A stretch of 64,000 nt of DNA from contig MARA01000070.1 of NCBI GenBank assembly GCA_001792895.1, forward strand, positions 1-64,000, read 5' to 3'. The notes beneath the pieces are model-generated. The model made no database searches. It was not told the origin of the DNA and saw only the letters and a program-made list of their open reading frames with translations. The DNA is from Lentinus brumalis (Eukaryota; Basidiomycota; Agaricomycetes; Polyporales; Polyporaceae). Made by a program: the position numbers and the translations under genes. Position 1 is the first letter of the stretch. The number at the start of each line of letters is the position of its first letter. Below, in pieces: positions 17,868 through 38,270 of this stretch.

Positions 17868-18234
17868 TGTTACGAACAGCCTCCCCGGTACTATTCATTT
17901 CCTTTCCCAGTCATCCTATTGTTCGATCACCATGATTCCCATGGTCCCTCTCACGCTATTGTCTTCATCCATGATGTCTCTCACGCTATTGTCTTCTGAC
18001 ACTATTGTTCCCTCATGTATATAAGACCACCAGCGCTACCTGGGGACCCTCAGTTTCGACCTCTTGTCCCCAGGTAAGCCAAGCTGTACTTCGCTCTGTA
18101 GATACCTCTCTCAATACATCTTGTCCCCAGCCCTGATCGTCGAGCATTGCTCCGCTCTCGCTGCACAAGTGCTCGTCGACGCCCCTGCTCGTCTCGTGAG
18201 TCTTTCCGATCCCCCTCGACGATCAGTCGTAACA
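17868..18234 (+). repeat. Chr-1 3' LTR (367 bp)
   Basis: Preceded by a purine tract GGGAGGGGGGTAC that serves as the polypurine tract for plus-strand priming. One base shorter than the 5' LTR. Confidence 0.95.
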
Positions 18235-18638
18235 CGTGGTGTGCAATTCAGATTCCGTTCTCCCCACAGTTCAGCTCTAAGTCTACCGCCGCCGCTCCGT
18301 GCTCACCGTTGAAAGTATCGCCGTCACCGTCAAGAAGTCCTACCGCCGTCGAGTCGATAAGTTCGAACCCGTTTCATCCGCTACTATCTCCGTGGTCTCC
18401 TCTCCGTGTCCTACGTGGTTCGCACCCGTCGCGTCCGTGCGTCGGAAGTCTCCTCGCCGTCCGGGCAGGCACCGTTGAGTCCTCCCTACCGTCCCGTCTC
18501 CGTGCCGTTCCCTCCATTCTTCTCCGTGGTTTCCGCGTCTCGTTCCGGACGCTCCTGTCGGTCGGGAGTCGTACGTAGCCCTCCTGGACATAGGTCTCCG
18601 TTCAGTTAGGGTTGGTTAGGAGCCTCTTCCCTCCTCGC

Positions 18639-18647
18639 ATATAAAAT
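18639..18647 (+). promoter_or_regulatory. Gyp-L LTR TATA box
   Basis: ATATAAAAT lies about 75 bases before the LTR end, in a position suited to driving the element transcript. The 3' LTR carries the same motif at about 42851. Confidence 0.6.
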
Positions 18648-18718
18648 ACGTGCATACAGTCCTTGGCTGGAGATTTGTGTGGTGTTATCCGCTCATTTCG
18701 CCCCTTGGCGTATCATAT

Positions 18719-18734
18719 TGGAGCCCACCGCGAG
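18719..18734 (+). promoter_or_regulatory. Gyp-L primer-binding site
   Basis: TGGAGCCCACCGCGAG starts 3 bases after the LTR. Its leading TGG complements a tRNA CCA end, and the remainder would pair with an acceptor stem and a T-stem ending CTCGC. The donor tRNA was not identified. Confidence 0.6.
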
Positions 18735-18743
18735 GGGTACTAG

Positions 18744-21700
18744 TGGCCATCTCTGATTTCAATCAAACTGTCGAGATCACCGTCCCCTTCCGAAACCGCT
18801 TCTCGTACCTCCGTCCGGACTTCGGACAGCCTTTCCTACACCGCTACCGCCCTCGAGGAACTCCGTCAACGTCTCCGCGCATTCCGCGAGGAACTAGACG
18901 AGGAACTCACACCCCTCCCCTCTCCTTCCGGATCCGCAAGCTTCGCTACCGCCCTGTCTTCCCCTTCGGAGCCGTCTTCCCTTACCCCGTTGCCGTCCTC
19001 CTCCGCTTTCCGTCCTCCCTCCCCTACAGGGAGCACTACCTCTCGAGCCCGTTCGGACACCTCGACGTCAAGGTCTCGGACTCGCCGAGCCCACCTCGAA
19101 CAGAACATCCCTCTCGCACCTCCTCTCGAGCTCCCACCCCGCCGACGCAGGAACCTCGTACCACCAACAATTCAGGAAGCAACCTCACAGGCCGCTCCTA
19201 CTACCCGTCCTATCTCTCCGCCCCTTCCGACTACCGAGATGGACGACCCTCTCCCGAACCCGAACCCGATCAACAACCCCGAACCGGCTAACCCGCAGCC
19301 AGCGCCGCCTCAGCAGTTTCAGGGCGGTGCACGCGACCTCGGACCACACACCATGCCTCTCCCGAACGAGCGCGGCGCCCCGATCTGGGACGAAGCCGGC
19401 CGCGAGACCGTCCAGCGGTTCTTCGACCAGTACGAGCTCCTCCTGCGCAGGAACAACGTCGTCGATGATCGGGACAAGAAGCGCGGTGCGACGATCTACG
19501 TTCCGCTTCCGGTCTCCCGTCGCTGGTCCTCGATGCCCGAGTTCCGCGACGAGCATACGACGTACGAGCAGTGGCGCGACACCGTAGTAGACTACTACGT
19601 CGGAGCCGACGAGAACCACCAGTACACTATGGCCGACTACCACGAGCTCATGGCCCGTCAGTATCCCAAGGGCTTCCAGAATCTAGCGGACTACTCGCAG
19701 TTCTACGTCGAATACCACCCGATAGCGTCGTACCTCATCAACCAGCAGCCTCCCGAGCTGACCCAGCGCGACGCCGCCTACAACCTTCTACGCCTCCTGA
19801 ACACCTCGCAGCGGAGCGCGGTCGACGGACGCCTCGCTCAGAAGGTCCCGGACAAGCCCCGAGCGGTGTCCTACACCCTGGCGCAAGTGCACGAGGCCAT
19901 CTCCTATACGATCGGGGACTCCGTTGACTTCGACGCGAATCCGGCGTTCGAGCGGTACGGAAGCCTGCGTCCGCCGCTGACAGGGGGACACTACGCCGCT
20001 CCGAGAGCGCCTGAGCCGTTCCGCGGAAGGAATCCCGCCCCGAGGCAGGAACCCTTGGCCGACGACAAGACCATCACGATCAAGACGGAGGACCTTCAGA
20101 CTCTCGTGCAGACGGCCGTTCAAACCGCTATGCGCGGTAGGAACGAGCCTCGCGACCGCGACCGCCGATTGGAACTCCAGCGGGGCCCGCCCCAAGTCCG
20201 CGAACCGCCGCCGCACCAGGAGCAGCAGCCGCGCTTCCCCCGCGACGTTCCGAGGTATCCGCAAGGGCAGCAGCCCGCTCCGGACGGCGGGAGGCTCTAC
20301 AATCCCCCTCGGAACGAGCCCCGCGAACGCGACCGAAACTGCTATTACTGCGGTCACACGGACTGTAGCATAGGCCGCTGCCCCGACGTCGAGACCGACA
20401 TCCGTGACGGACTGATCCAACGTTCTGCGCAGACGGGCCAGCTTGTCTTAGCCAACGGCCAGCCCATTCCGCGCGGCAGGGGTCCGATTCGAGAGCAAGT
20501 CCGCTTCTACTACGATCGGAACCAGCCCCAGCCGCCCGAGCCTCCGGCGGTCGCGCAGCTCATGTTCTCCGTCCTCACAGCCTCCGGCCAACGGTCCGTA
20601 CGTACGGCCGAAGAGGAGAACGAGATGCTCCGTCACAAGATCAACTTCCTCGAGGACCGCGAGAAGCGTAAGCGCGCAGTGTTCGACGGGGTCGAGCTTC
20701 CGGCGCGCCCTCCGAAGAAGGCTACCGCCCGCAAGCCTGCCCGTACTTCCGGACCTTCGACCAGGGCGACCCGAGTCGAGGAGGTACCGGACGAGGAGCC
20801 GCTGCGTTCCGCACACATCGAGGAGATACCGGAGGACCAGCCCGTTCCAGAGGGAGCGCCCGCGCCGAGAGCGGAGACGCCGGAGGTGGTTAACGACCCT
20901 TCCTACGTCGTACCGGTACACCCTTACGCGCAAGTCCGCGACGCCTCCACCGCCGGCGCGCCGAAGGCTAAGGATTTCGCGTACGGCCCTAACGCGCCCC
21001 GCGCCAAGTCATCCGAGGTGACCCCCGCGTCCGAGGCAGCCGGCCGACCTCAACCGGCATCCGAGCACGTCGTCGGACCAACTGGACAAGCCCCCGCGCA
21101 GCCCGCCGGTAGGGTTACTGCGTACCGGAACCTCCCGCCGGTAGCGGACAAGGATGCAGAGGAGCGTGTTTGGCAGCGCAACTTCGTCAACGAGCAGTCG
21201 GTCCACCTCTCCGTGTCCGAGCTCTTCAGTCTCGCTCCGGGAATCTGTAAGAAGGCGCACAAGATGACGGGCAGCAAACGCGTCGCCTTCGACGTGCCGG
21301 CCATCCCGCTGTCGGTCCTGTCCGTAATGATGGACGACCCCGAGACCTCCGAAGACGTCCTGGAGTCGGTGCAGTGCCTGGAGGACCTGTCCGGTCCGCC
21401 CGAGGAGGCAGGAAGCACCGGAGGCATCGTGTCCCTCCAGCTGCGGGGAGGCGACGCCGACAACGAAGAGGACGAGCCGGTTCCCCGCCAACGCAGCCGC
21501 TCCAACAGTCTCATAGTCGGCAAGCCCAGCGAGAAACTCCGGGCGCTCTTCGCCTGGGTCAACGAGGCGGAACTGGTAGAGTGCGTCTACGACCCCGGCT
21601 CCGAGGTCGTAGCGATCTCGGCGGACAAATGCTACGAGCTCGGCATCCCGTGCGACGAGAGGCAGAAGAATCCGATGACCTCCGCAAACGGAACCAAGGA

Positions 21701-21983
21701 CACCACCAAAGGCCTAGCTAACAACGTCCTACTGGAGCTGCAGGGCGGGATCGCCATCTACCTACAGATGCACGTCGTGGAGAACGCCGCCTACGACATC
21801 CTGCTCGGTCGTCCCTTCGAGACTCTGATGGGGGTCAGCAGCCGGAACCTCCCCGACGAGAAGCACGAGCTGGTGGTTACCTGCCCGAACACGGACCGCT
21901 GCCTGACCCTCCGCACTTACGCCCGCGGAGACTCGCCGAAGACGTCGGAACCGCCCATGGGTTTTCGGCCTTCGAGGATCTGA
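18744..21983 (+). CDS. gag-pro: Gyp-L gag-protease
   Basis: The frame is open from 18744, just after a TAG, with no in-frame ATG until 19240. It starts with a coiled-coil-like TALEELRQRLRAFREELDEEL and a Pro/Ser/Arg-rich linker. A capsid-like domain follows (about 19380-19930: VQRFFDQYELLLRRN, YPKGFQNLADYSQFYVEY). Next comes a variant zinc finger CYYCGHTDCSIGRC (about 20338), an acidic/proline linker, and a retropepsin-like domain (about 21560-21830) with DPGSEVVAISADKCYELGI and AYDILLGRPFE. The active-site triad is D-P-G-S rather than D-S/T-G. Near 21960 the frame appears shifted by one base: the alternative frame reads FSAFEDLTAGRGEVALLVEY and runs to the KDZ insertion. The start mechanism is unclear. 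Confidence 0.8.
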   Translation, partial: WPSLISIKLSRSPSPSETASRTSVRTSDSLSYTATALEELRQRLRAFREELDEELTPLPSPSGSASFATALSSPSEPSSLTPLPSSSAFRPPSPTGSTTSRARSDTSTSRSRTRRAHLEQNIPLAPPLELPPRRRRNLVPPTIQEATSQAAPTTRPISPPLPTTEMDDPLPNPNPINNPEPANPQPAPPQQFQGGARDLGPHTMPLPNERGAPIWDEAGRETVQRFFDQYELLLRRNNVVDDRDKKRGATIYVPLPVSRRWSSMPEFRDEHTTYEQWRDTVVDYYVGADENHQYTMADYHELMARQYPKGFQNLADYSQFYVEYHPIASYLINQQPPELTQRDAAYNLLRLLNTSQRSAVDGRLAQKVPDKPRAVSYTLAQVHEAISYTIGDSVDFDANPAFERYGSLRPPLTGGHYAAPRAPEPFRGRNPAPRQEPLADDKTITIKTEDLQTLVQTAVQTAMRGRNEPRDRDRRLELQRGPPQVREPPPHQEQQPRFPRDVPRYPQGQQPAPDGGRLYNPPRNEPRERDRNCYYCGHTDCSIGRCPDVETDIRDGLIQRSAQTGQLVLANGQPIPRGRGPIREQVRFYYDRNQPQPPEPPAVAQLMFSVLTASGQRSVRTAEEENEMLRHKINFLEDREKRKRAVFDGVELPARPPKKATARKPARTSGPSTRATRVEEVPDEEPLRSAHIEEIPEDQPVPEGAPAPRAETPEVVNDPSYVVPVHPYAQVRDASTAGAPKAKDFAYGPNAPRAKSSEVTPASEAAGRPQPASEHVVGPTGQAPAQPAGRVTAYRNLPPVADKDAEERVWQRNFVNEQSVHLSVSELFSLAPGICKKAHKMTGSKRVAFDVPAIPLSVLSVMMDDPETSEDVLESVQCLEDLSGPPEEAGSTGGIVSLQLRGGDADNEEDEPVPRQRSRSNSLIVGKPSEKLRALFAWVNEAELVECVYDPGSEVVAISADKCYELGIPCDERQKNPMTSANGTKDTTKGLANNVLLELQGGIAIYLQMHVVENAAYDILLGRPFETLMGVSSRNLPDEKHELVVTCPNTDRCLTLRTYARGDSPKTSEPPMGFRPSRI

Positions 21984-22052
21984 CCGCCGGTCGGGGAGAG
22001 GTCGCCCTTCTGGTAGAATACCAGCATACCACCCCAGCAGCTGTTGTAGATA

Positions 22053-22060
22053 TAATGTAT
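22053..22060. repeat. KDZ TSD (left)
   Basis: TAATGTAT is repeated directly at 34461-34468, immediately outside the inverted termini. Eight bases is the TSD length reported for Zisupton-type elements. Two further bases (TA here, CA on the right) may belong to it. Confidence 0.7.
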
Positions 22061-22203
22061 TACATGCCGTTAGATGGTCTGGACCGTATTACAAAACGGT
22101 CCGTACAAAGGTGTATTGTATTACGCCCTTCCGGGAGGTCCGTAGCCTCTTCCGGGGGTACCTGGTCGGCATCTCGGCGGTTTCCCAATGTGGTAGGGGC
22201 TCC
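22061..22203 (+). repeat. KDZ left terminal inverted repeat
   Basis: Begins TACATGCCGTT and contains ATGGTCTGGACCGTATTACA and CCCTTCCGGGAGGTCCGTA, all present inverted at the right end. Confidence 0.9.
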
Positions 22204-22589
22204 CGAATGGCTGATGGAAGACTCCCCAAAGAGGTATGTTCTCTATCATAGATGTATATCACCATTGCCGAGCTTTGTTTGGGTTCTACTCTAGCGTTTG
22301 TTCATGTCTAGAGCGCCTATCAGCCTTCACAGGTGGTATCTTTGAAGTTGATAACTACTATGTTGCTGCAAAGTTATACCATCTTGATGCGGTTGTGTCA
22401 TTAACTCATGTTTACTCATTTCAGTTAATAATACAGACTCGTTTCAATACAGTGAACCACACGATCATCATTCTATATATGGGAAGACAGCAACATCTAA
22501 GTATACTTGTTAAGGGTGCCGCGCCGCATTGGACACACGAGACAGTCTACCGACGACTGCGCTTAGGAGGAGGACCAAGCTGGGCTTCC
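22204..22589. other. KDZ subterminal region, no gene seen
   Basis: AT-richer sequence between the left TIR and the first cargo gene. No supportable frame. Confidence 0.45.
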
Positions 22590-25500
22590 TCAAGAAGCAG
22601 GTGTTTCCTGTGCATATATTAGACACTGCATATCGTCATGCGTCAGTTGAAGGCGGACGTACCGAGAACTCCGTCCCATTTGGGACACCACCCATGCGAC
22701 ATCGTAGGCAGCAGCATCCCAGTCGTTGGATGTAGCCGCTGTGGCAATCTCCTTCCACCAGACCAGGGTGAGAAGCACCATGAGGAGGCCATTCTTGCCT
22801 GGCCGACAGAGACTCTTGCCCCAGTCGCTGCCGACGCTGTTGCCAAGTACTGGACGTCCATCTGAGCTGCGCGTCCGCCACTCAGGCTGTAGATGGGACC
22901 ACCACGCCCACCAGGCTTCAGCAAAGGATGCCTCCTTCTTGATGGGCGGACTCTTCTGCATGTCGCGCCCGTTGCGTATCCAGACGGCGACTTCGCCAGG
23001 CCGCCCAACGGTGCCAAGGCCAATTTTCTGGAAACACAATCAGTACAGAGCAGAAGGAAGAGAGATGTGTCAGAGCTTACGCCTGTCTGCCATTCATAGA
23101 CTCGCTCGAGCGCCGTCCACCATCCCACCGCTCGTTCAAAGGACTCGCCATAGTTCCGCCCAGACAAGAACTCGTACCCCTCCTGCACCCAGTCAGGCCA
23201 GTCAGCACGGTCGATGATGGCCGCCGGAATGAGACCTTCTGCGGCAGGTGTGGATGTCGTGTGCACTTCGTCCACAGACATCGGGGTTACGTCTGCATTG
23301 TGACTGAAGATCGCGGTGCCGTTGGTGAGCGTCGCAGTCGTGTTGTCGCCGCTACCGGGTGTCGCGGTCGTGCTCGGCGTCGCGGTCGTGTTCTCGCCGC
23401 TGCCGGGTGTCGCGGTCGCGTTCAGCGTCGCGGTCATGCTCGGCGTCGCAGTCGTGTTGTCGCCGCTACCGGGTGTCGCGGTCGTGCTCGGCGTCGCGGT
23501 CGTGTTCTCGCCGCTGCCGGGTGTCGCGGTCGCGTTCAGCGTCGCGGTCGTGCTCGGCGTCGCGGTCGTGCTCGGCGTCGCGGTCGTGTTCTCGCCGCTG
23601 CCGGGCGTCGCGGTCGTGTTCTCGCCGCTGCCGGGCGTCGCGGTCGTGTTCTCGCCGCTGCCGGGTGTCGCGGTCGCGTTCAGCGTCGCGGTCGTGCTCG
23701 GCGTCGCGGTCGTGTTCTCGCCGCTGCCGGGTGTCGCGGTCGCGTTCAGCGTCGCGGTCGTGCTCGGCGTCGCGGTCGTATTCTCGCCGCTGCCGGGCGT
23801 CGCGGTCGTATTCTCGCCACTGCCGGGCGTCGCCGTCGTGTCGCCATCGCTGCCATCTATGGCGTTGGGGGTATTGTTGACGTTCCTGCTTGAGGCGCTG
23901 AGATTTTGCATCTCCATCTCAGGATTGAGACGTGAAGAGCGACGTTGAGGCTCAGCGGGCTCGCCGTCGCGACGAACTGGCCGAGGGGTTGGCTTCGTGG
24001 TCTTTGTGCGGATACCGTGAGTGGGGTCGATCGCCCGCATGACGGCTTGATTGTGCGCCCGCATGCAGACACCGCGTCGGTCGTAGTCCGACATGCGAGA
24101 GAGGCCAAAGAGACGATGGCGGCGAGCTTGGGGGGTGAGCGCAGCGAGCTCCTCCTTGATTGCGTTGTTGAGTCCCAAGTCGTCAGCGTCTGGTGTGGAC
24201 CCCCTCTCAAGCCCCTCATACTCCGCGTCCTCGTCCTCGTCCTCGTCCTCATCCTCGTCCTCGTCCTCCTGGCCCTGTACGTCACCATCAAGCCCCCAAT
24301 CCGACCGTAGCTGGTCTTCTTCTTCATCCTCCTCCTCGTCGTCCCCTCAAACTCATCCTCCTCGTCAGTCTCCTCCATTGCTTCCCAATCACCGCCAGAG
24401 CGGCGTCTTTTCTTCTTCGTGCCGCGCTTGTCCTTCTTTGACGCAGCGGCCTTGTTGCTGCTCTCAGGGCGACCATCAAGCTCGACCTCAACCTCCAGCC
24501 CCAGGGAGGATAGAGGCGGCGTAGATGCCGACGAGGCAGGTGCTGGAGTAGCACTACCTGTAGGCGTGGGCCGCATGGTCAGGAGGGACGGACAGGACAT
24601 GCCCAGATTGACCATCCGATCCTTGTACTCTGGAAACTGATGTTAGCATGGGCGGGGTCAGGAATGCGCGTGTCATGCATACCCTTCGTGTGCGCGAGAT
24701 AGCGAGAATACGATCCCATGACGTCGTTGTGAAATCTGTCGCCCTCGTGCTGGTGCCAAGTCATAGGGAGCGGACCATCGGTCTTGCCTGCGTTGATGCT
24801 GAGGAGGAAGTGGTCAGCATGGATCTTGAATGCGGGATATCGTGAACTGACACTTTGACTTGGAACTCCTGAGGGCCGTTGATCAGCGCTCTGCCGCAAA
24901 TCATCGTGACATGAAATCCTGTTAAGTCCCTGATGACTTGGAGGAGAGGTTGCGTGTAGACAGCGAGGTCTTCGCGCGCGCTGGGGGAGGGTGAACTTCG
25001 AGATGATCAGAGGCAGCGCGACGGACTCACTGTGCGCGAGACTCCTCAACCCTCATGGCCTCAGGCACTGCGGCCATGTTCTCGTACTTCTCCATATCCT
25101 CCTTGTGTAGCCGCTTGCATTCCTCCTGCAGCCAGGCGCGGTACTCATCGGTCTCCTCCTTCAAGAGGTCGCGCGCAATTTGTCCGCGGTAGGAGATACT
25201 GAACTCGGGATCCAGCCCAGAAGCGGGCCATCTCACGGCGAAGGTTTCCTGAATGTGGTCTGGCTTCTCGCTCATGTAGAGCTGCCAGACTGCAAGCTGG
25301 CGGGGCGCGGTGGTCGTCGCGTGCCTCTTCAAAGCTCCAAGGATGATAGCCCAAGCGTTATGCTCGCTGCGCATCCTGGCAGTCACCATGTACCGCATAG
25401 AGGACTTCAGTTGCTGGCCTGCAGGTCAGACAACGTGCCCAACAACAACCAGGTAGAGAAACGTACCTGCTGCGTCCTCTTGATCACCCTCTTCTTCTCC

Positions 25501-25874
25501 TCCTGCTCCTCAGCGGTCAACTCCTTGTCGGTTTTCCAGACGTCTCCAGGTTGAGGCTCGCGATCGAGAGGCAGCTGCCAATTGAACTTGTCCCAATACA
25601 GCGCGAAGAAGTTGTGCCAGAATCTTGTGTGTTCCTTCTGCGCGCCTCTGGGGAGTAGGGACAGCGCGTCCACATGGTCTTGTAGCAGCTCCAAGCGAGC
25701 CCCGGTAAATGTAGACTTCGCACCGGGTTTCGCAGGGGGCTCGTCAGGGGACCGTGCTTGGGCCTTCTTCGCTTGCCGACGAGCTTGTCGGCGGTCGCGC
25801 GTCGGACCAGAGGTCTGATAGTGCTGAGGCTCGAGCTCAGGAGCTTCAAAGTCGACGTTACCCAGAGCAGGCAT
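22590..25874 (-). pseudogene. KDZ cargo gene of unknown function, one frame break
   Basis: The minus-strand start is MPALGNVDFEAPELEP at ATG 25874. Exon 1 is 25874-25467, exon 2 is 25413-about 25031 (RYMVTARMRSEHNAWAII; FSISYRGQIARDLLKEE), and further short exons encode QPLLQVIRDLTGFHVTMICG and MTWHQHEGDRFHNDVMGSY. An acidic, Ser/Lys-rich linker follows. The frame slips by one base near the GGGG run at about 24345, then continues with LNNAIKEELAALTP, the TATPGSGEN repeat, EGYEFLSGRNYGESFERA, and a Trp-rich C-terminus (EAWWAWWSHLQPEW; WDAAAYDVAWVVSQM). The Trp-rich end and the N-terminal HNFFALYWDKFNWQLPL block match a family widespread in mushrooms, function unknown to me. Exon limits in the middle are approximate. 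Confidence 0.65.
23326..23845 (-). repeat. coding minisatellite (TATPGSGENT / TATPST units)
   Basis: Tandem 27-bp units encoding TATPGSGEN (or GDN) mix with 18-bp units encoding TATPST or TATLNA on the minus strand. Unit lengths are multiples of 3, so copy-number change keeps the frame. It forms a Thr-rich linker of about 170 residues. Plus-strand open frames across it are by-products. Confidence 0.9.
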
Positions 25875-26116
25875 TGAGAGACGAGAGACGAGCAACGCGC
25901 AGAGGATAGACAGTGCAGCAAACCACGGGCAGGAAGGTACTTAGAAGAATGAGTCTGTACGCGCACCTTGAACTTCAGGATTAGCGCGGGTCACAAATCA
26001 CGTGACCGTGGCCAGCGTCTCGTGCTGGCAGCACCGATCATCAAGACATTGCACATTGCACCTTCGCATCCTCTACGCTCAACTGCAATCCGCTCCTCGC
26101 AAGTTCTCCCTGGACA

Positions 26117-27169
26117 ATGATAATCAAGAGTGTACGTGAAGGCTACGATCGGGCTGCTCTCCGGGTGGGGACGACACCAGTATACGAGGAGGACGGTCAG
26201 ATTATGGTGTTTGGGGATATAGATGATGGGCTCGCACACACGGTATGGATCGGGCGATGTGTCGGGGTGTTCATGGGCTGGTGCGTGGTACGCTGTCGTA
26301 CTGATCTCATTTACTTACCTTGCACAGGGGTCTCGCAGGTCCCATGGTCATAGGCTTCGGCGGTGCGCTGCACAAGAGATTCAAGTCCATCGAAGCCGCC
26401 CGCAGGGCCTGGGTCAATGGTCCCTCCACTGACCCCGACTGGCATGCTCCGGAGCCCCGCGCACCTATCCTCACCGACCTCATATTACCCCCGATCCCCT
26501 CTCGGCTTCGTCAGTCGCGACTGCCCCCTCAAGCACGGCCTCGGACACCTATGTCAGTGCTCGCGCTGAACATGCAACGCCGACCCTCGTCGAGCAGTCC
26601 CCACAGAAGCCGCATCGTGCAAAGTCAACGGGCGAGGCAGTCAGCGCGAAGTCTCAAGGCGTCCCTCCCTGTGCGAGGTCCCCAGTAATGCCGGCCATCG
26701 TGAAGTCTTCGGAGAGACCGCATGTCACGCGCGCGCACGGCCAGGCAGCCGATAGTCCCCGCAATTACCCCCTCCCAACGCCACCGACACCATCGAGACC
26801 CAAGTCTCCCGGTCACCGCCCGCCATTGCCCGTCCTGCCGTCCTCCGTTCTTGATACGCCTCGGACATCCACGAGCTCAATCCCCACGACGACAACATCG
26901 ACGATCATCGTCTCGGAGGGCCGTGCGTACGTCGTTGTGCGCGGGGACGCGCCAGGAGTGTACACCGATAAGTGAGTGGCAACCTATTCATGACTCCCAA
27001 CCCGCTCTGACTCCGGTGCAGGCATACTGCCGCGCTCATGGCAGGCAAGCATGCTGGGCGGAAGGTCAGGGCGTTCCGCACCGTCGAGGAGGCGGACAGG
27101 TACTATGCTCAGAAGGAGATCCTTGGGGAGGTCGGCGTACCGGCTTTCAGGCACGAGGTCGTTCAGTAG
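26117..27169 (+). pseudogene. KDZ cargo: protein with two RNase H1 N-terminal-like domains, one frame break
   Basis: Exons 26117-26280, 26328-26971 and 27022-27169. The first domain reads AHTVWIGRCVGVFMGW, spliced to GGALHKRFKSIEAARRAWV. The second reads RAYVVVRGDAPGVYTDK, spliced to HTAALMAG and VRAFRTVEEADRYYAQ. Both match the small RNase H1 N-terminal/caulimovirus viroplasmin fold, which binds RNA-DNA hybrids or dsRNA. No RNase H catalytic domain follows. A Pro/Ser-rich linker joins the domains; the sensible frame there shifts by one base at a CCCCC run near 26489. It might bind nucleic acid during transposition (inference). Confidence 0.65.
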
Positions 27170-27282
27170 CTGTAGGAGTAGGTATAAGTACTGTACTCGC
27201 GCGGACTTATGTCGTCCTGGTCTCAATCGATGCTATGGTTGCTCGCATATGCATTAGCGGCGTGAACTACACAAGTACAGTG

Positions 27283-27947
27283 CTACATGCGCCCTTCAAC
27301 CTCGTCAAGCTTGACAGTGGTCATCACGATCAACCACTGAGCATTAAAAACCGTTGAGCACACCGTTCCCCAGAGCTTCTTCGCCTGGATGGGATGAAGC
27401 TCGTGCATAACCTCGCTGCCCATGAAACCTTCCAGCGAGAGTATGATGCTGTCCCCCTCCTCCAGCCAGTCCAGTGTCTCCTTGACCCACTCATCCAGCC
27501 CTCCAGGGCGACGACGAGCCTTCTTGATCCTGGACTGGAGGGTGTAGATATAGTCCCGCGGTTCGTCGAGGTAACCCCACGCCTGGAGGCGACTGTTCAG
27601 GATGGTCACCTCCGCGACTCGGAGAGGGGAAAGCGTAGTCGGCAGGGTGAGCGGATATTGAGCCCTGACATGCACCTAGGTTGGTGCACTGGATGTGTAC
27701 AGATGGACGGAGCACTCACTGATTAGAAGAGGCATCTGAGTTCGTGCTGGTGCCAGAACGCGATTTTGCAGCTTTAAGTTTGAGTCGAGATCGGATCTCT
27801 TTCATACTACATTTCATGTGTAAGTGTCTGAAGTGAGAACGGACAAGAGGCTTACTATTTTTTCTTCTCATAGGCTCGCCTGTTTCGAGCCTGTCGCATG
27901 AGTTGCGACTTGGTCAGTTCTTCTGCTGGTCTCGCGCGGCGTGGCAT
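27283..27947 (-). CDS. KDZ cargo: small protein with a basic region
   Basis: Three exons (27947-27856, 27806-27720, 27664-27283) join in frame to 186 codons plus stop. The N-terminus is MPRRARPAEELTKSQLMRQ followed by ARNRRAYEKKYMKEIRSRLK, a strongly basic helix-like segment reminiscent of a bZIP basic region but without a leucine zipper. The C-terminal part (WGYLDEPRDYIYTLQSRI; DEWVKETLDWLEEGDSIIL) is acidic and helical, with no domain I recognise. Similar basic small proteins are common in mushrooms. DNA binding is inference. It lies head-to-tail behind the TET/JBP gene. Confidence 0.6.
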
Positions 27948-28369
27948 GACGGTTAGACCGAGTTGTGACAAGCGGGGCCTGTACAATATTATGAGCGCTG
28001 TCCGAGGATGAGGAGGTGAGGTGAGGAGGAAGCACCTCGCAGCGTAGTGTATGTGTTCGGAGAGCCAGGGAGGAACAAGTGTGCGGGGGTACCCGGTCTT
28101 TTTGCGCCCGCGCGCACATTTGCCTGCAGCGCTAAGACGCGTCTTAAACAGTAAGACGCGTCTTAAATTCCTTTGCAGAGGGACAGCTTCTGTAGTGTGT
28201 GGAATCTCACTAGTAGTCTGAGACGTCCAACCAATATACGCTATAGGTAGTATACTTGCCATCGATGGTTTCAGTCGCATGTTGTCTCTCCTAGAATCGA
28301 GTTGGCAGGCGCAGTGAAACGACCGTGACCGCGTCAAGATATTCATTCTCCCAAGTGGAAAGTACAAGT

Positions 28370-29963
28370 CTACATAGGTGCAGGGGTATCGCGAAGCTCA
28401 GACACCGTGCTAAATAACCGCCAGCCCTCCCTCCATTCCTCGTACTCGCTCTCTAAGTTGTATCCAGCTGCCCTGTACGCCTTCAAGGTACGGAACCCAC
28501 ACTTCACCCAGCGGAATAGCCCGCCTGCTGAGTACTGAGTGAGTGAGTAGCGGGTCTCGCCATCTGCAACAGCGACGTTGGAGTGGCAGAGGATCGCGGA
28601 GGGGATGAGGATGGTGGAACCCGGCGGAAACTCGATTATGAGCTTCGCGTCCCACAGAATAATGTGTCCGCCCTTCCGGTAGTCGTAATTCCCCAGCGCC
28701 GTGATGGCGCACATTCCGAACGCAAAGTTGAGGTGGTCTAGGTGCGGGAACGTGGCCACGCGCGGACCAAGGTTGAACGTTGCCGCGCCGAAGACGTTGT
28801 TGGGGAAGTTGCGTTTGAGGCGTGGGTCTGACTGCTCCAGCGCGTCGAGGGTTTGCCCATACAACCGGTGAACCTTCGGGACGTAGTTCTCGAGCCCGCC
28901 TTCAGCCGGGTCCAAACTCAGTGTCGTGATGCACGGCGGGAGTGATGAGGGGAGCACGCACCGCTGCCGAAGTTGGCGATCCGGAAAATGTTGGGGTCTG
29001 ACTTCAGATCGTCTATGATCTTCTGGCGCCGCACGGAAGTCTTCAGGTTCCCAACGCGCTGCGCCTGAATGAGCACCAGTTGCTGTTTGAAGGAATTGGG
29101 CGTACCTGTTGACCTGAGCCAATCGAAATACCGGTGTGAAGCGCATAGTGCCCGCCGCGGCGATGCTGAACCGCGGCCTCGAACGTCGCTAGCTTCTCCT
29201 GGGCTTGCTTGAACTTCTCCGTAGCTCGCGCGACGAGGAGCGGCCACTCGACATCCTTGGGCTCCCCAACGAGGGTTGTGAAGCTCCGTCCGGTCGGGTC
29301 GACGACCAGGCAGGGATTCCTGCGTAGTGATTGGAGCCATGCACCAGACGGCAGGCGGGGAGGGGTGGCGCACCTTCCAGACCAGCTAATGTACTGAAAC
29401 CCCAGCTTCTTCGCTCCCTCAAGCGGCATCTCCTTGCGCTGGAGGCGGTGAACTTTGAGGGCGCGCCCGATGACGCCAGTACTTGCCACATGTAGGTTAT
29501 CGGGGGTGAGGGCGAAGTTTGTCGTAAAAACTTCACCCCCACTGCGATGCTTCAGACACGCCGCCTTGAGTGAGACCCCTGCGGCCTCCTGCTTCTTCTC
29601 GCGAAGGACGCGCCTGTTGTCGCGCTTGCGCTTGCACTTCAGCTTCTTGTGGAACTGCGCCTTGCTCAACCCATCGCGGGGAGGGTTACGCGCGCCGACC
29701 GAGTCACTGCTGCGGGGTGAGGGTGGCGGCAGAGGAGAAACGGGGGACGGCGCAAGACGCGGAGAGGGCGGGGGAGTGCTGAGCGGCGATGATGGCGGTG
29801 TCGAGAGGGGTGAGGAGAATGGAGAGAACATAGACGCCGCGACCATGGGGACGTCGCCCGCGTTGAATGCTGTGGCGCCCGCGTCGTCGCACGCGCGCAC
29901 CGGCTCCTCCAAGTCATCGAGCACCGGCTCATCCTCATGGACGACTGTCCCGTTGCCACTCAT
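28370..29963 (-). CDS. TET/JBP-family 2OG-Fe(II) dioxygenase
   Basis: Exons 29963-29106, 29064-28958 and 28916-28370 join in frame to 503 codons. Both introns are 41 bp by this reading. The start is ATG 29963 (MSGNGTVVHEDEP). A low-complexity Ser/Pro and Lys-rich N-terminus (residues 1-130) precedes the catalytic domain. FPHLDHLNF gives the H-x-D metal ligands, ITALGNYDYRKGGHIILWD and LIIEFPPGSTILIPSA are family-typical strands, CHSNV gives the distal histidine and GETRYSLTQYSAGGLF the 2OG-binding arginine. TET/JBP enzymes oxidise 5-methylcytosine or thymine in DNA, and mushroom members are expanded and associated with KDZ transposons. All key residues are present and the gene looks functional. 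It is divergent from the transposase gene at 30500, leaving a 0.54-kb shared upstream region. Confidence 0.9.
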
Positions 29964-30499
29964 GCGCAACTTCTCCGCCAAAGCTCGCCGAAGAAGAGCG
30001 TCGTAGTCGAGCTTGACGGGCGCGTGTACAGGAACCCCGGAGTCCGCGTTCCAGGGAGAGAACGTGCTTCCTGCACGCGTCTGTTGGCTTCAGGAGTAAG
30101 CAAGAATCCAGCTGGTCAGTTGTGCAACTCACTTTGTGAAATCCGAAGACGGGGGGAGCGGAGGCTGCAAAAGCTCGTGGTTAGCACGAAACCATGCGTG
30201 GATAGGAGCCGGGTAACCACCGTGCGCCGACCTGCCGTTTGTCTCCGAGTCCCAAAGGCGGGCCCCGCTTATAGACGCGTCCAGGTCGCACGGGGCATGC
30301 TGAGACTACTCACCGAGTGTACTGTACAAGGGCATGCCGTGTTGCGGGTGGGTTGAAGGTGGGAGGAGGAGCGCGCCAACATAGACGCACTGCGGGCCCA
30401 TATCCGCGACGCGTCACGATCACATGATCTGTGTGACACTCCCTGCTGAGGAAGTTTGACTTCCAAGTTCTCACTCGGTATTGACAGGCTTCGAGAAGC

Positions 30500-33400
30500 A
30501 TGTCAAGTCGGGCGCGCACCTCAAAGCGTCGCCGTGCGAACGCCGACCTCGACTCCTGCATCGACCTCTCTCTCTCTGCTCCTGACGAATACCGCGCTGC
30601 TTCGGCCACTTCGTCAACCACCGTTGAGACAGCATCCGCCGACCTGCGGCGCGTCAAACGCGACACATTCCCTCTCCCTTCTCCCAGCCCAGTTGCCGAC
30701 TCGCCCGGACAAGCCTTTTCGACACCACTTTCAGGGGATTTAGGGGACCACGAGGATGTAGAGGGAGGAGGATCATTGGGTGCAGTAGGAGGGGGAGAGG
30801 GCGAGTCTCGGGCGCGAGCTAAGAGGTATCTCAACTCGGTGAGTAATGTTTTCAGTTCCTCTGCGCGCTCCGACCTGAGAATGTGCCAGGACGAGCCAAT
30901 GAAGACATGGCTGCCCATGGTCGACAGCGTGCTCGATGAGCTTGTGCGGCGCGACGGCCGGGCGGACTTTCGTCCGTTCGATCGATGTCTCTCATGTACC
31001 GACCAGCCCAATGCGCGCGCGGCGGTCATCCGTTGCACCAGCTGCGATCCTGGGCATCTGGAGTGCGAGGAGTGCTCGAAGGTCCGGCATAGGCGGCAGG
31101 CCTGCCATAGGTTACAGGTGCGCTATATTTCTTTCTAGCGGCTGTTGCTTTACTGAATTTCGCGCAGCGATGGAATGGGCGGTACTTCGAGGTCACATCG
31201 CTCAAGGATATCGGCTTCGTCGTGCAGCTTGGCCACCCTGATAACTCGGAATGCGCAAACCCTCGCCCCGCGCCAGACGACTTCTGTGTAATCGATATCA
31301 ATGGGCATCACAATGTCGCGCTCAACTTCTGCGCCTGCGACCACGCCGGTGCCGCTGGGACCATGTACGAGCAACTACTTCGTCGCGATCTCTTCCCCTC
31401 CACGGTTGTCGACCCGCGCACTGCCTACACATTCCGCTTACTCGAGCATTATCACATCCAAAGTCTACAGGGCAAGCTGTCCATGTACGACTACTACGAG
31501 TCCCTCGAGCGTCTGACCGACAATACTGGCACGAAGACTCTCCAGGACCGCTACAAGTCATTCATGAGGGTGGTCGCCCAATGGCGATACCTGAAGCGTC
31601 TCAAGAGAGCTGGTCGCGCGCATGATCCATCAGGTGTCGCGGGCACTAAGCCCGGCGAGCTCGCAGTCCCTTGCCCAGCGTGTCCCCTTCCCGGCATCAA
31701 TCTTCCGCCCAACTGGGAGGATGTATCCGACGATCTCCAGTAAGCACGCCCTCCTCCTACCCGTGAGGTGCATTGACCGACGATGTCGGCGCAGGTACCT
31801 GTATGTCATGTGCGTCGCAATCGATGCTTGCTTCCGTTTGAAGAGGAGGGATGTTTCGAGCACGGAGAAGGACCCTATCCTAGGGAGCGGATGGGGTTAC
31901 TTCGTGGAGGACACAGGGTACCAGCAGATCCTCGCTGGATATGGCGCGCAGAAGGAGGTGAGCACACATACGATCAATTGTCCAGGGCGTAGTGCCGACG
32001 CGTACATGCAGATTTCAACATGTGCCGGGTTCGCCGCAATAAGCCAAGCCAATGCACGGTTTTCTAAGGGTTATGCCGCCTCTGGTGTGGGTGCATGTAT
32101 CTGCGCGAGGCACCAGTTTATGCTGGCAAACGGTGTAGGCGACACCCAAGTGGGCGAGAAGTATGTACTCAATCTCACTCTCATTGTGAATGGGCGGTCT
32201 CTGACCGCGTGATAGATACATTAATATGGATTACATATTCATCTCCGCCATGCTGCACAACCTACGCATCCGAAAACTGGTGTCGTACGACATTGCGTGC
32301 CAGTGGTCGAAGGGCCTGCTCGAGCGCATCAGTAAGTTCCCGACGCACATGCAGATCCCCCTCCCATCTGGCAGCATCAAGTACTCCATCCCGAAGCTGC
32401 ATTGGCACGGTCACGAGCGCAAGGACCACTCAAAGTTCTCCTTGAACTACATCCCTGGCGCGGCGCGCAATGATGGCGAGGGTATCGAGAGGAACTGGTG
32501 GGAGGCGCAGCCCCATGCCAATAGCACCAAAACCATGGGGCCTGGAGGGCGGCAGGGCACGCTGGAGGATTCATGGGGCTACTCGAACTGGCGCAGAGTC
32601 GTCCAACTGGGTATGTAATTTGCGAGCATCATATTCCTTCCACTAGCTAAGATAATCACTCAGCTGAATACATGCGCCGGCGGTACATGCTCGCAAGATC
32701 GATGGCTGCATCGCAGACCAAGGAGTACGCGAACTTGACGAACAGCCTTGAGAAGACGAACGTCGTGAAGTGGGAGGCTGAGGTCGCGGCCTGGGAGGCC
32801 GACATGACGCTGCCTGATCCCTACCATGTTGTGAAGACAGGTGCATACCGCCGCAGCCTACATGTTGTCGATCTCTGCTGACTTACGCTTAAATTAGGGC
32901 CGTCCGAGGCGCAGACGAAGCAGGCAATCGCGAAGGAGGTTCAAGCGAAGTCTGCGGCCACAGGCCATGTCGCGCAGGGCCAAGTGAGCGCGCTCGGCTT
33001 TATTACAATGGCCTTAGATCTCGAGGACTCCCAGTAAGTCATTCTGCATGATCGTTCCATATACATGTGCTCATGCTACTTAGAGTACGGCTGAAGGAAG
33101 AGGCCGAAAAAGCAGAAGCCGACGACACCAAACTGCCACAGGTCCTCGAGCAGCGCACCTCATTTCGCCACCGTGTGCAGAAGCTGCGAACACTGCAGGC
33201 TATCTATACGCCCGCCGCTCTGCCGCTGCTGCTCAAGAACCCAGCGGCGCACACAGAGACTGAGGCCATTGAGAACATCCTCCTGGGTCTCCCCTCAGAG
33301 ATTGCACCAGGAGATCGAGCAACCGCCTGCCCCTCCGACATACTCTCGATAGAAGCGCGTCTGCGCGACGCACAGTGCCGCGACTCACTTCAAGACTTGC

Positions 33401-34227
33401 GGAACCACCTCCATGCTCGGCACCGCCTCTACACCATCAAACGATTGCACGTACGTTATCAGGGCCCTAGCACGCGCGCTCGAACCGAGATTGGCGGGGA
33501 GGATGACCGCGTCCAGCGCGCGGCTGCGAAGTATCGTCGTGCTCGCCGTGCGAAGCTCGCGCTCATTGGTCCTGGTCCCTGGGAGGCCGAATTCCGAGTC
33601 CTCACCGACAACGACATTCGTGGGGTGCAGGATGATGACCCGGACGCTGTGGCAGAACGCGCGCGCAAACGGAAGAAGCCCGGTCCTGCTGAGGGATACA
33701 AGACCGTCTCCTGGATTTGGCGGGGCGCTGACAGCGACGAGGCTGGCTATGCCGACTCCTTGCGAAGGGAATGGCTGCAGCTTCGTGCCCGCTTGAAGCG
33801 TTGGTTGGAGGAGAAGCGGCTGCTGCCCGAGGAGATGCGTCGTGTCCTCGCCTTCCTGGGCTTTGCCGAGGCAGCATGGCTTGCTAGGATCGGACAGCGG
33901 CCTGCTGTCGACGACACCCTGCAAGAGGGTCTCACGGCCTACGCACACAGACAGGCTGCTATCCGGCACGAGCTGCGCGGATCGTGCCGACAGGTGTGGC
34001 TGAAGCTGGCCCGGGATGCAGGCGTCGCGCTGGGTGTAGAGTGGGAGCCTGTGGAGGGCTATGTTGCTCGGACGATTCGGCGGCGGGTTAACAATCGAGT
34101 AGTGGTGGAGGATGAGGATGGGGAGATTCTGGACGGTGCCCAGGACCTGGGGGAGGAGGACGAGGAGGGGACCCTAGCCGAGTACAAGCGCTTTGTAGAG
34201 CGAGAGCTTGCTAATGGAGAACCCTAA
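30500..34227 (+). CDS. KDZ transposase with CxC2-type cysteine cluster
   Basis: Eight exons join in frame: 30500-31117, 31168-31739, 31795-31957, 32012-32160, 32216-32610, 32664-32840, 32898-33033 and 33084-34227. They total 1117 codons plus stop with every intron GT-AG, so the gene appears intact. The N-terminus is Ser-rich. A cysteine cluster (residues about 165-260) reads CLSC, RCTSC, LECEECSKVRH, then QLGHPDNSEC and ALNFCACDHAG. The RNase H-fold catalytic core has the first Asp in CVAIDACFRLKRR, the second in SYDIACQWSKGL and the Glu in DGEGIERNWWEA. GVGACICARHQF and the C-terminal GEKYINMDYIF block are family hallmarks. The tail is Glu/Arg-rich coiled coil. It should cut and join the element at its TIRs. 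An older name family is Kyakuja-Dileera-Zisupton. Confidence 0.93.
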
Positions 34228-34318
34228 ACTGTGGGTAATATGCATCAATTGTCGGCTCCAAGCTTGTGTAGCGCTAGGGAACTGTTTAAGTGCAGATTTG
34301 ATCGCTGTAGACACCCTC

Positions 34319-34460
34319 CGGGAGCTCCTACCATACAGGGAAGCAGCCGAGAAGCCGACAGACACCTCCGGGAGAGGTTACGGACCTCCCGGAAGGGTCT
34401 AATACAATACACTTTTGTACGGACTGTTTTGTAATACGGTCCAGACCATTGAACGGCGTG
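34319..34460 (-). repeat. KDZ right terminal inverted repeat
   Basis: Reverse complement of 22061-22203 with scattered substitutions. Ends CGGCGTG before the TSD at 34461-34468. Confidence 0.9.
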
Positions 34461-34464
34461 TAAT

Positions 34465-37400
34465 GTATCATGGGTACACCAGTTGGTGACCACCCAGCAC
34501 GCCCGGGCTACCGCCTACGCCCCCATGCCCGACGGTGCCCCTATATCTATTCTCCTTTCCTATCTGTCCGCTTGCGAGGAGGTCACGTCTAAACCGTCGC
34601 TCCAGTCCCTCTTCTTTTCCACTGTTCCGTCAGCTCTCTCGTCCTCTGTCTCTCCGATGCGTTCCTCTGCTTCCGGCTCTCTATCTCCTACGTCGGTGCC
34701 GGTGGGTCCGGGCCGTCCGGTGGCTACATACCCAGTCTCCAAGACGAAAAGCCAACCGCAGCGACCGGTCCCCCCGAACCGCGATACCCCTCGTCTCTCC
34801 GCTACTGGTTCCAAGCCTCCGTTCACGGTTCTACTAAAAAGCAAAAAGAAATACAAGCCGGTCGCTCTCAAGGTCCGTCCTGTGATCGGCGAGCTGCCCG
34901 CAGAATACCGCATCGTCCGCAACCGGATCGGCGACCCTCTAGCCGACCTCCCGCTCCTAGACCCGAACCCTCCGCCGTATGTTCCGACGGGACGCTACAC
35001 CGCGGAGCGCAGGGAGCGTTTTCGAGCGCATCACGCGCAATGGTTACTGCCCGCCAAGCTGGACGTCCTAGACGACTTCATGTGCAAACAACAGGGAGCA
35101 TTTGCGTGGGACGACTCCGAGCGGGGCAGCTTCCGGCGTGACATGTTTCCCCCAGTGCGGTTCCCGGTCATTCCGCATGTTCCGTGGGTAGAGAAGAACT
35201 TCCCTATCCCGCCCGGTATTTACGCTCAAGCCGCGGCCCTCATCCAACGGAAGATCGCCGCCGGAGTCTACGAGCCTTCCAACGCGTCCTACCGGTCCCG
35301 GTGGTTCTGCGTACTCAAGAAGGACGGCAACATCCGGATCGTCCACAGCCTCGAGCCTCTCAACAAGGTCACCATCCAGCACTCCGGAGTCCCGCCGGTC
35401 CTGGACCACCTCGCGGAACAGTTCGCCGGTCGCGCGTGTGGCACGACGTTGGACCTCTACGTGGGGTACGACGAACGGGAGATCGACGAGCGCTCGCGCG
35501 ACTTAACCACCTTCCAGACGCCGTTCGGAGCTATGCGCCTTACGACGCTTCCGATGGGTTGGTCGAACTCAGTTCCGATCTTCCACGATGACGTCACGTT
35601 CATCCTGCAGCCGGAGATACCGCATGTAACCCTTCCCTATATCGACGATGTTACGGTCAAGGGCCCCGCGGACCAGTACAAGGTTGCCGTAGGAGGGTGG
35701 GAGATGATCCCGGCGAATCCGGGAGTCCGAAGGTACTTCTGGGAACACCTACCGGACGTCAACCGTTGCGTTCAGCGGGTCAAGCATGCCGGCGGGACGT
35801 TCTCCGGGACTAAGGCGAACATAGGACCACCGGAGTTCGTAGCCATCGGGCACTTCTGTACTCCGGAGGGGCGTAAGCCCGACGTCAAGCGCACCGAAGC
35901 CATCGCCAACTGGGGACCGTGCAAGGACCTCTCGGAGGTCCGGGCCTTCCTCGGAACGGTCGGGGTGGCCCGCATCTTCATCAAGGACTTCGCCAAGCGA
36001 GCTAACCCCCTGGTCAAGCTAACTCGGAAGGATGTTCCTTTCGAGTTCGGGGCGGAGCAGCTACAGGCGATGGCGGACCTCAAGCAGGCTCTCCTGGACT
36101 CCCCCGCCCTCCGTCCGCTCGACTACGAGTCCGACGCTCCTGTCATCCTGGCCGTCGACACCTCCTACATCGCCGTGGGCTACCATCTCGCCCAACAAGA
36201 CATCAACGACCCGAAAATCCGCTACTACAATCGCTTCGGCTCTATAACCCTCAACGAGCGCGAAGCCCGTTTCTCGCAGGCCAAGCTCGAGCTTTACGGA
36301 CTCTACCGGACACTTCGCGCACTCCGGTTCCACCTGATCGGGGTCCGCAACCTTGTCGTCGAAGTCGACGCCCGCTACATCGAGGGTATGCTCCGGCACC
36401 CCGACTACGCCCCGTCCGCTTCGATGAACCGCTGGATAGTCTCCATCACAACCTTCCACTTCACCCTAGTCCACGTACCCGGAGTACACCACGGCCCCGA
36501 CGGCCTGTCGAGGCGTCCACCTCAGCCGGGAGACACGCCCGAGCCGGACGATGACTTCGACGACTGGATCGACCGGCTCTATAGCATGATGCACTTGGTC
36601 AACCCTCCTCCGACGCTCCGTTTGTCCGACGCCCCGCTACGCGCACCGGCCGCACCGGACGCGCCCTCCTTCACCATCCTCATGCAGCAAACCAGCGGAA
36701 CGTCTGCGAAGCTACCGGAGGTCCCGCCGATACCGTACGATCGGTTTCCGCGGACATCCGCTGCAGCGAAGATGGACCGACGCCTCGAGCTAGCGCGCGA
36801 GTGGTTAAGATCTCGCGAGCGCCCGTCAGAGCTCGACGACCGGGAGTTCACCCGACTCTCGAAGTGGGCCAAGGATTTCTTCGTCGACAAGGAGGGCCGC
36901 CTTTGGCGCACCTCAGAAGACGGGGCCCACAAGAGGGTACTCGCACCGGACATCCGCTCGCAGGTCCTAGTCGAAATGCACGATTACATCGGACACCGCG
37001 GAATCTACGCGACCCGAGCCTTCGTCGCGGAACGTTTCTGGTGGCCGGAAATGAAGTCCGACGTTGCCTGGTACGTCCGTAGCTGTCACCTGTGCCAGAT
37101 CCGCCAGACTACTCGTATCCACATCCCTCCGACCATTCCGTACCCTGCTCCGCCGATGGTCCACGTTCACGTTGACTCTATGGATATGCCAGGGACCTAC
37201 AAGCACTTCTTCCACGCTCGGTGCGCTACTACGTCCTGGGTCGAAGGCCGAGCGTCCAAGTCGCAGACCGCGCAAGTCATCGGCGACTGGCTCTACCAAG
37301 ATCTCCTGTGCCGGTGGGGCGCGGTCTCCGAGATCGTGTCCGACAACGGGTCCCCCTGGATAGCCGCCCTCGAGTACCTCTCGAAGAAGTACCACGTCTT

Positions 37401-38123
37401 TCATATCCGTATCTCCGGCTACAATTCGCAGGCAAACGGAATAGTCGAAAGACCGCACTTCCACGTCCGGGACGGCCTCTTCAAGGCCTGCGACGGGGAT
37501 GCCTCCCTATGGGTCTCCCGAGTATACACCACCCTCTGGGCGGACAGAGTCACCGTCCGACGACGCCTAGGCTGCTCTCCGTACTTCGCGGTCACCGGGA
37601 CGAACCCAATCATGCCATTCGACATCGCTGAGGCGACCTACCTGATGCCGGTACCCACCAAGATGCTATCGACCGCCGAGCTCATCGTCCGACGCGCCAT
37701 CGCACTCCAGAAGCGTCCGGAGCAGCTCAGCCTCCTGCGCTCTACGGTCTTCAAGCAGCGGGTCGAGGCAGCGCAGAAGTTCGAGCAGGACCACGCTCGG
37801 ACAATCAAGTCCTTCAACTTCGAGCGCGGACGCCTCGTCTCATGCGCAATACCGCTATCGAAAAGTCCCTCAACCGCAAGATGCGCCCCCGTTGCCTCGG
37901 CCCCTACGTGGTCATCAAGCGGAACCGCGGCGGAGCATATGTCATCGCCGAACTCAACGGCGCCGTCTTCGACCGCCCCGTCGCCGCCTTCCGACTCATC
38001 CCGTACCTCGCCCGAGAAGCTATCTACGTGCCCGACGGTGCGCTCGACGTCTCCGACGACAAGCTCCGCATCATCGAAGCAACGGAGGTAGATGAGCAGG
38101 AGGACTTCGAGGACGTGGATTAA
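34465..38123 (+). pseudogene. pol: Gyp-L pol: RT, RNase H, integrase
   Basis: The frame opens at 34465 within the KDZ junction; the first ATG is at 34524 (MPDGAPISILLSYL). The RT has WFCVLKKDGNIRIVHSLEP and the catalytic LPYIDDVTVK (about 35630-35655). RNase H begins PVILAVDTSYIAVGYHLAQ. The integrase has an HHCC finger (HDYIGHRG; CHLCQ), then VHVDSMDMP, SEIVSDNGSPW and NGIVERPHF as the D-D-E triad. A GPY/F-like C-terminal module (RPRCLGPYVVIKRNRGGAY) lies one frame away: a base is missing near 37836, so the first frame ends at 38091 and the true C-terminus at 38123. No chromodomain seen. Apart from that break the polyprotein is complete. Confidence 0.9.
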
Positions 38124-38151
38124 CCACCCCGGGTTTAGCGCCCACGGAAGC

Positions 38152-38194
38152 GTCGACTGAGGACAGTCGACATTTCAGTGGGGAGGGGAGGGAT
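38152..38194 (+). promoter_or_regulatory. Gyp-L hairpin plus polypurine tract, inner copy
   Basis: A 7-bp stem GTCGACT/AGTCGAC with a six-base loop GAGGAC is followed by ATTTCAGTGGGGAGGGGA. The same hairpin-plus-purine layout recurs at 41838-41873 against the 3' LTR. The inner copy stands 30 bases after the end of pol. Confidence 0.75.
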
Positions 38195-38270
38195 ATCCCG
38201 CGCCAAGCACTACATTACGAGAAACTATACCTACCGTTGCCCTTTACTTACGTCCCCCGTTCCCTTCCCT

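What the first reader, a model, noticed from the sequence alone, without database searches (positions are those of the whole stretch)
22061..34460. Apparently complete KDZ transposon carrying an intact TET/JBP dioxygenase and three more cargo genes
Seen: inverted termini, an 8-bp TSD, a transposase whose eight exons sum to an unbroken 1117-codon frame with D-D-E residues, and a 503-codon TET/JBP gene with all metal and 2OG ligands. Known: KDZ elements in mushrooms associate with TET/JBP genes. Inference: an autonomous, recently mobile element that carries its own DNA-modifying enzyme, perhaps to alter methylation at its ends or at target sites. The double RNase H1-N-like protein and the basic-region protein would be further accessory factors.
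Basis: partly seen in the sequence, partly recalled or inferred. Interest (0 to 1): 0.9.

Follow-up and report, generated by a model that had tools for sequence, protein, structure and literature searches.

The report
Mushroom jumping gene with TET enzyme
This is a recently inserted fungal DNA transposon of an already described kind that carries its own TET-like DNA-modifying enzyme; the enzyme differs from the type described for such transposons, and it travels with three accessory genes kept in the same order in related elements of the same genome.

Summary
Comparison with five uninterrupted copies of the retroelement it sits in puts it at 22035-34488 (12,454 bp), with 7-bp duplications ACCACCC (22028-22034, 34489-34495), CA..TG termini and 130-171-nt inverted repeats. 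The claimed 8-bp repeat lies inside the inverted repeats. The 1117-aa KDZ/CxC2 transposase is confirmed. TET-carrying Kyakuja elements with 7-bp duplications and CA..TG ends were published in 2025 (PMC12730594), so the kind is known.

The parts
22035..34488 (.). whole transposon, 12,454 bp, 5'-CA..TG-3' termini
   Evidence: empty-site comparison with retroelement copies L004-L008; TIR arms end at exactly these bases
22028..22034 (.). left target-site duplication ACCACCC (7 bp)
34489..34495 (.). right target-site duplication ACCACCC (7 bp)
22035..22164 (+). left terminal inverted repeat (130 nt ungapped; to 22205 with gaps)
34359..34488 (-). right terminal inverted repeat (130 nt ungapped; from 34319 with gaps)
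30500..34227 (+). KDZ transposase, 8 exons (30500-31117, 31168-31739, 31795-31957, 32012-32160, 32216-32610, 32664-32840, 32898-33033, 33084-34227), 1117 aa
   Evidence: gene model; Pfam KDZ 4e-53, CxC2 8.7e-41
28370..30335 (-). TET/JBP-like dioxygenase, 6 exons (30335-30314, 30164-30133, 30080-29374, 29319-29106, 29064-28958, 28916-28370), 542 aa model; start uncertain
   Evidence: gene model; homologues; fold of the family; catalytic residues
27283..27947 (-). small protein with basic N-terminal region and conserved C-terminal domain, 3 exons, 186 aa model
   Evidence: relatives; no Pfam or NCBIfam match
26117..27169 (+). double RNase H1 N-terminal (Cauli_VI) domain protein, 4 exons, 286 aa model (second intron, 95 nt, weakly supported)
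   Evidence: Pfam PF01693 3.8e-13, two stretches; relatives
24345..25874 (-). N-terminal part of large accessory gene, with HMG-box-like region; reading frame breaks near the low coordinate
   Evidence: fold; relatives
22547..24345 (-). C-terminal part of the same gene in another frame, with Thr-rich repeats about 23300-23850 and a conserved Trp-rich domain (low coordinate by eye)
11414..42927 (+). young LTR retroelement that was interrupted by the transposon (LTRs 11414-11996 plus 18235-18715, split by a nested element, and 41874-42927)
   Evidence: reading frame with RT/integrase-like sequence 34453-38091, judged by eye

Best explanation
A cut-and-paste DNA transposon of the KDZ group, Kyakuja-like, that inserted recently into a young retroelement. 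Its transposase recognises the long TIRs with CA..TG tips and makes a 7-bp staggered cut (TSD shown; biochemistry inferred from the family). Four further genes travel with it as a lineage-typical set, not as chance cargo: a TET-type Fe(II)/2OG dioxygenase, a double RNase-H1-N protein, a small basic protein and a large HMG-box-like protein. The TET most likely oxidises 5-methylcytosine on the element, lifting host silencing so the transposase can be expressed; the DNA- or hybrid-binding accessory proteins would help target it or assist transposition. Shown: ends, TSD, gene order in relatives, TET fold of the family and catalytic residues, constraint on all five genes. Inferred: 5mC as substrate, anti-silencing role, targeting.
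Confidence: 0.65

Rival explanations
1. The TET and accessory proteins act in transposition itself (marking ends or targets, or helping excision and integration) instead of lifting silencing; this is the reader's suggestion.
For: Co-inheritance of DNA- or hybrid-binding partners with the transposase; HMG boxes bend DNA (general knowledge), as a transposition cofactor might.
Against: KDZ1-3 of Cryptococcus insert into a reporter gene, and the passages seen name only the KDZ core and a CxC1 domain for KDZ1 (PMC12810828, passages); 50 clusters hold a KDZ hit alone, though their completeness was not examined. Kojima proposes anti-silencing (PMC12730594).
Confidence: 0.2
2. A decaying or dead copy: the broken HMG-like frame and single-copy state mean the element no longer moves.
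For: Frame break near 24345 relative to P0123; no second close copy found apart from a telomeric fragment.
Against: Transposase frame open over 1117 codons, perfect TSD, insertion into a retroelement whose LTRs differ by 2 substitutions.
Confidence: 0.13
3. Zisupton-type element with the 8-bp TSD TAATGTAT at 22053-22060/34461-34468, as first read.
For: The two 8-mers are identical and adjoin similar sequence; Zisupton makes 8-bp TSDs (PMC12730594).
Against: Retroelement copies lack also 18 bp outside the left 8-mer and 20 bp outside the right one, and TIR similarity runs to the outer ends.
Confidence: 0.01
4. Chance clustering: unrelated repeats and host genes between two diverged inverted repeats.
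For: The region is repeat-rich.
Against: Same five genes, order and orientation in C86 and C109 between TIRs with their own TSDs.
Confidence: 0.01

Closest known systems
TET+ Kyakuja DNA transposons (Kojima 2025, PMC12730594)
   Same: KDZ transposase plus TET/JBP gene within one element; 7-bp TSD; 5'-CA..TG-3' termini; Agaricomycete hosts
   Different: Here TIRs of 130-171 nt (about 145-320 nt in the relatives examined), while the two Laccaria type families are described as without TIRs; TET has Asn/Cys instead of Gly-or-Ser/Asp; HMG-like, RNase-H1-N and basic genes, which the text parts read do not mention (a word search of the main text gave 0 for HMG and RNase)
AG-type TET, CcTET of Coprinopsis cinerea (PDB 7vpn, 7w5p, 8jkk)
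   Different: About 14% identity; lacks the Gly331/Asp337 pair; has the Asn of human TET2. AG-type copies exist separately in this genome
Human TET2 / Naegleria NgTET1
   Same: Fold; Asn at the TET2 N1387 place
   Different: 11-16% identity; Cys at the TET2 Thr1393 place
Cryptococcus KDZ1 (PMC12810828, passages)
   Same: KDZ transposase with a CxC-type cysteine cluster, about 11 kb, long TIRs (241 bp); shown to move
   Different: 8-bp TSD, CxC1; no TET mentioned in the passages seen

Membership tests
KDZ DNA transposon | KDZ transposase domain with DDE-type residues | tested here: met
   Pfam PF18758 4e-53; candidate residues in IDACFRLKRR, SYDIACQWSKG, GIERNWW, with counterparts in C86 and C109; their assignment as catalytic is by eye
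Kyakuja | 7-bp TSD (Zisupton and Dileera 8 bp) | tested here: met
   window, C86, C122, C1 7/7; C109 6/7
Kyakuja | 5'-CA..TG-3' termini | tested here: met
   five of five elements examined (C1 and C122 are the same family)
Kyakuja | no TIRs (stated for Kyakuja-1_LB and -2_LB; descriptive, not shown to hold for all) | tested here: not met
   TIRs present; hence called Kyakuja-like
Kyakuja | transposase groups with Kyakuja in a KDZ tree | not tested
   no named reference sequences on hand
TET/JBP dioxygenase | Pfam Tet_JBP match above cut-off | tested here: not met
   window protein none; 27 of 101 family members weak, best 1.2e-6 and 28.3 bits against 34.9
TET/JBP dioxygenase | TET-like double-stranded beta-helix fold | tested here: met
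   for homologue P0024:
TET/JBP dioxygenase | HxD, distal H and 2OG-binding R | tested here: met
AG-type TET of Kyakuja | Gly/Ser at 331 and Asp at 337 (CcTET numbering) | tested here: not met
   Asn 100/101 and Cys 101/101; positions counted without gap from the HxD motif
PE-type TET | HxE motif | tested here: not met
   HxD in the window protein; D in 99/101, N in 2
PU-type TET | residue pattern of Pucciniomycete TETs (Kojima Fig. 7) | not testable with these tools
   figure and supplement not held
HMG-box protein | HMG-box fold | tested here: inconclusive
RNase H1 N-terminal domain | Pfam PF01693 | tested here: met
   3.8e-13, two stretches

The most novel reading that the evidence does not exclude
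Agaricomycete Kyakuja-like transposons carry a fourth, undescribed type of transposon-borne TET (Asn at the N1387 position, invariant Cys at the Asp337 position), predicted to be 5mC-selective, within a conserved five-gene anti-silencing and transposition kit; it coexists in one genome with AG-type TET elements predicted to act on both 5mC and 6mA, and the two types were not found together in any one cluster.
Probability: 0.5. Interest if true: 0.72.

Novelty: new variant of a known kind. Interest (0 to 1): 0.55.

Why it matters
Whether transposons use TET enzymes to undo host DNA methylation is an open, testable question. This genome offers a natural comparison: related KDZ transposons with no detected TET, with the AG-type TET, and with the window-type TET, including sister copies identical over the compared stretches, in one assembly. 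If the Asn/Cys type is 5mC-selective, substrate choice by transposon-borne TETs becomes testable residue by residue. The conserved partner genes give concrete candidates for how such an enzyme would be aimed at the element.

Tried and rejected
Chance cargo: rejected. CpG composition as a test of anti-silencing: uninformative. Structure prediction of the HMG-like protein: poor overall; Foldseek gave no match at E <= 0.001, only the VIA second look shows HMG boxes. Homologue searches: RNase-H1-N protein 2 hits, best Polyporus arcularius; HMG-like part 3 hits; TET 185 hits among the 7997 candidates scored, a lower bound. Literature searches for KDZ and TET, KDZ with HMG, an RNase-H1-N transposon protein and anti-silencing in fungi listed no description of this gene set; only the listings were seen, apart from three papers opened. 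Iyer et al. 2014 (PNAS; recalled as the first TET/KDZ report) is not held, so it may already describe some of these genes or this TET type. Of Kojima's paper, text parts 1-4 of 7, the figure legends and word-search passages were seen; parts 5-7 were not read through, and the figures and the supplement were not seen.

The pN/pS values come from tblastn-aligned codons, which favours conserved stretches, and silent changes are near saturation in most comparisons (pS 0.44-0.78); they show constraint but are not exact.

Rows dropped before the cluster count: KDZ hits were typed one per locus from the printed list (further matches were not listed); Tet_JBP hits, the 19 above 40 bits of 29, called AG type in the count although only nine of them were read at the motif (eight with Gly, one with Thr; nine with Asp; one further locus was printed on the wrong strand); window-type TET, 38 rows of 75 (extra exons, and loci under about 30 bits, left out); RNase-H1-N, HMG, basic and HMG C-part hits, one row per locus. 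Clusters joined hits less than 6 kb apart, so neighbouring elements could be merged (as at C115, two KDZ hits) or one element split; on C62 a window-type cluster and an AG-type cluster lie about 8 kb apart.
Full report
1. Where the element ends. The window lies in contig C105 of a 53.4-Mb, 136-contig genome. The match runs to 22034 on the left and resumes at 34489 on the right, with ACCACCC on both sides and once in each of the five uninterrupted copies. The element is therefore 22035-34488, 12,454 bp, with a 7-bp target-site duplication. The inverted-repeat search had independently placed its arms at 22035-22164 and 34359-34488.

2. Age. The flanks differ from the five uninterrupted copies at 5-8 of about 1138 aligned positions. 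The host retroelement's own LTRs, 11414-11996 plus 18235-18715 (split by a nested element) and 41874-42927, begin TGATAGG, end GTATCA and differ by 2 substitutions and 3 gap openings over 1061 columns. The insertion is younger than that retroelement. No close second copy of the element was found; a fragment at C72:1-487 lies against telomere repeats. One search scored 35 of 36 candidates and does not list the window itself, so it is not exhaustive; the protein searches agree, with best non-self identities of at most 76%.

3. Transposase. Eight exons, 1117 aa, open throughout. Pfam finds KDZ (4e-53) and CxC2 (8.7e-41).

4. The TET gene. My model has six exons and 542 aa. Pfam finds only a chance-level match in it (ArgJ, 0.14), and it has no sequence match to a solved structure at E <= 1. 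It has 185 relatives at E <= 0.001 (of 7997 candidates scored; best 120 listed); those named are fungi, among them Trametes, Athelia, Mycena and Schizophyllum. I aligned 99 others and P0024 (100 of the 120 listed) with one window exon; 27 of these 101 give weak Tet_JBP matches and 31 weak 2OG-FeII_Oxy_3 matches. A model of one of them (P0024, Lenzites) is confident (pLDDT 92.5). Its best structural matches are CcTET, NgTET1, TET2 and CMD1, ahead of FTO and AlkB, though CMD1 and FTO are close. The metal and 2OG ligands are all but invariant (H 101/101, D 99/101, H 101/101, R 101/101).

5. A different TET type. In CcTET, Gly331 and Asp337 give activity on both 5mC and 6mA; conventional TETs have Asn1387 (TET2), Asp234 (NgTET1) or Asp350 (CMD1) at the first place, which binds 5mC and excludes 6mA (PMC11040006, abstract and passages). 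Kojima reports Gly or Ser and conserved Asp at these places for Kyakuja-borne AG-type TETs, and HxE for the PE type (PMC12730594, text parts 1-4 and figure legends read). The window type has Asn in 100 of 101 and Cys in 101 of 101, counting from the HxD motif without a gap. The same genome also has AG-type genes: of nine read at the motif, eight have Gly (one Thr) and nine have Asp, and one of them matches CcTET at 1.6e-13. The two types were not in the same cluster. From this I infer, without test, that the window type prefers 5mC; the role of its Cys is unknown.

7. The set is conserved. Two relatives at about 68% nucleotide identity in the transposase region were read from end to end. C86:29410-41964 has TSD CTTCGTC on both sides; C109:45502-58203 has CTGGTGT/CCGGTGT (6 of 7). 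Both carry all five genes in the same order and orientation. By hit coordinates, C35:649-660 kb does too, and C1, C60, C122 and C115 lack only a detected RNase-H1-N gene. The C1 and C122 elements both span 13,064 bp by coordinates, are identical over the two ends compared (2684 and 2281 bp), have TSDs TTCTGCG and GATGAGC and TIRs about 94% identical over some 320 nt; C60 matches the 2684-bp stretch at 100%. All nine RNase-H1-N loci found lie by a KDZ hit; four of them are in AG-type TET loci (C59 read), so this gene partners both TET types. Nine other clusters hold only KDZ plus window-type TET, and 14 window-type TET loci stand alone, so the full set is not universal. Replacement changes are far fewer than silent ones in every gene (pN/pS 0.25-0.54).

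8. How it most likely works. The transposase moves the element (family knowledge). Host C5-methyltransferase matches exist (2 places), so cytosine methylation is plausible. The TET would oxidise 5mC on the element and relieve silencing, as Kojima proposes for such elements; the binding proteins could aim it or assist transposition. No enzyme, methylation or expression data were available. CpG content does not discriminate.

9. What is known. TET-carrying Kyakuja elements with 7-bp TSDs and CA..TG tips are published (PMC12730594). KDZ elements are known to move in Cryptococcus; KDZ1 there has 241-bp TIRs and 8-bp TSDs (PMC12810828, passages). New here, as far as the searches of the held library show: the Asn/Cys TET type on such an element, long TIRs on a 7-bp-TSD KDZ element, and the conserved five-gene set. 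Iyer et al. 2014 could not be read, so part of this may already be in print.

Noticed in passing
G000:C72:1-487 (L003): A truncated right end of a relative lies directly against telomere repeats (CCCTAA)n; its last 50 transposase residues are 80% identical to the window's.
   Followed up: partly
G000, Tet_JBP loci: 13 of the 19 loci above 40 bits lie within 20 kb of a contig end: subtelomeric preference, or assembly breaks at repeats. Two loci that reach a contig end (L012, L077) show no telomere array.
   Followed up: partly
G000: L028-L031: Weak Tet_JBP matches (28-35 bits) that share another motif (FNRFS..H[WF]D..DP.WAW), a further 2OG-oxygenase group that is neither the AG nor the window type.
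   Followed up: no
C86 and C109 elements, HMG gene C-terminal part: dS between the two is 0.66 there against 1.67 in the transposase, as if pieces were exchanged between elements.
   Followed up: no
window 11994-18234 and 46513-52775: Two 6.2-kb inverted copies, 97% identical, each with 368-379-nt terminal direct repeats 99.7% identical: young LTR-type elements; the first sits inside the left LTR of the host retroelement.
   Followed up: partly
P0046 (Trametes sanguinea, 942 aa): A predicted protein joins a window-type TET relative and a partial Plavaka transposase match: this TET type may also ride on Plavaka elements, or the gene model merges neighbours.
   Followed up: no
window 23300-23850: Thr-rich coding minisatellite inside the HMG-like gene; relative P0123 has a similar but diverged repeat region.
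   Followed up: no
G000:C105:87268-87624: A second, different KDZ transposase hit lies on the same contig outside the window.
   Followed up: no
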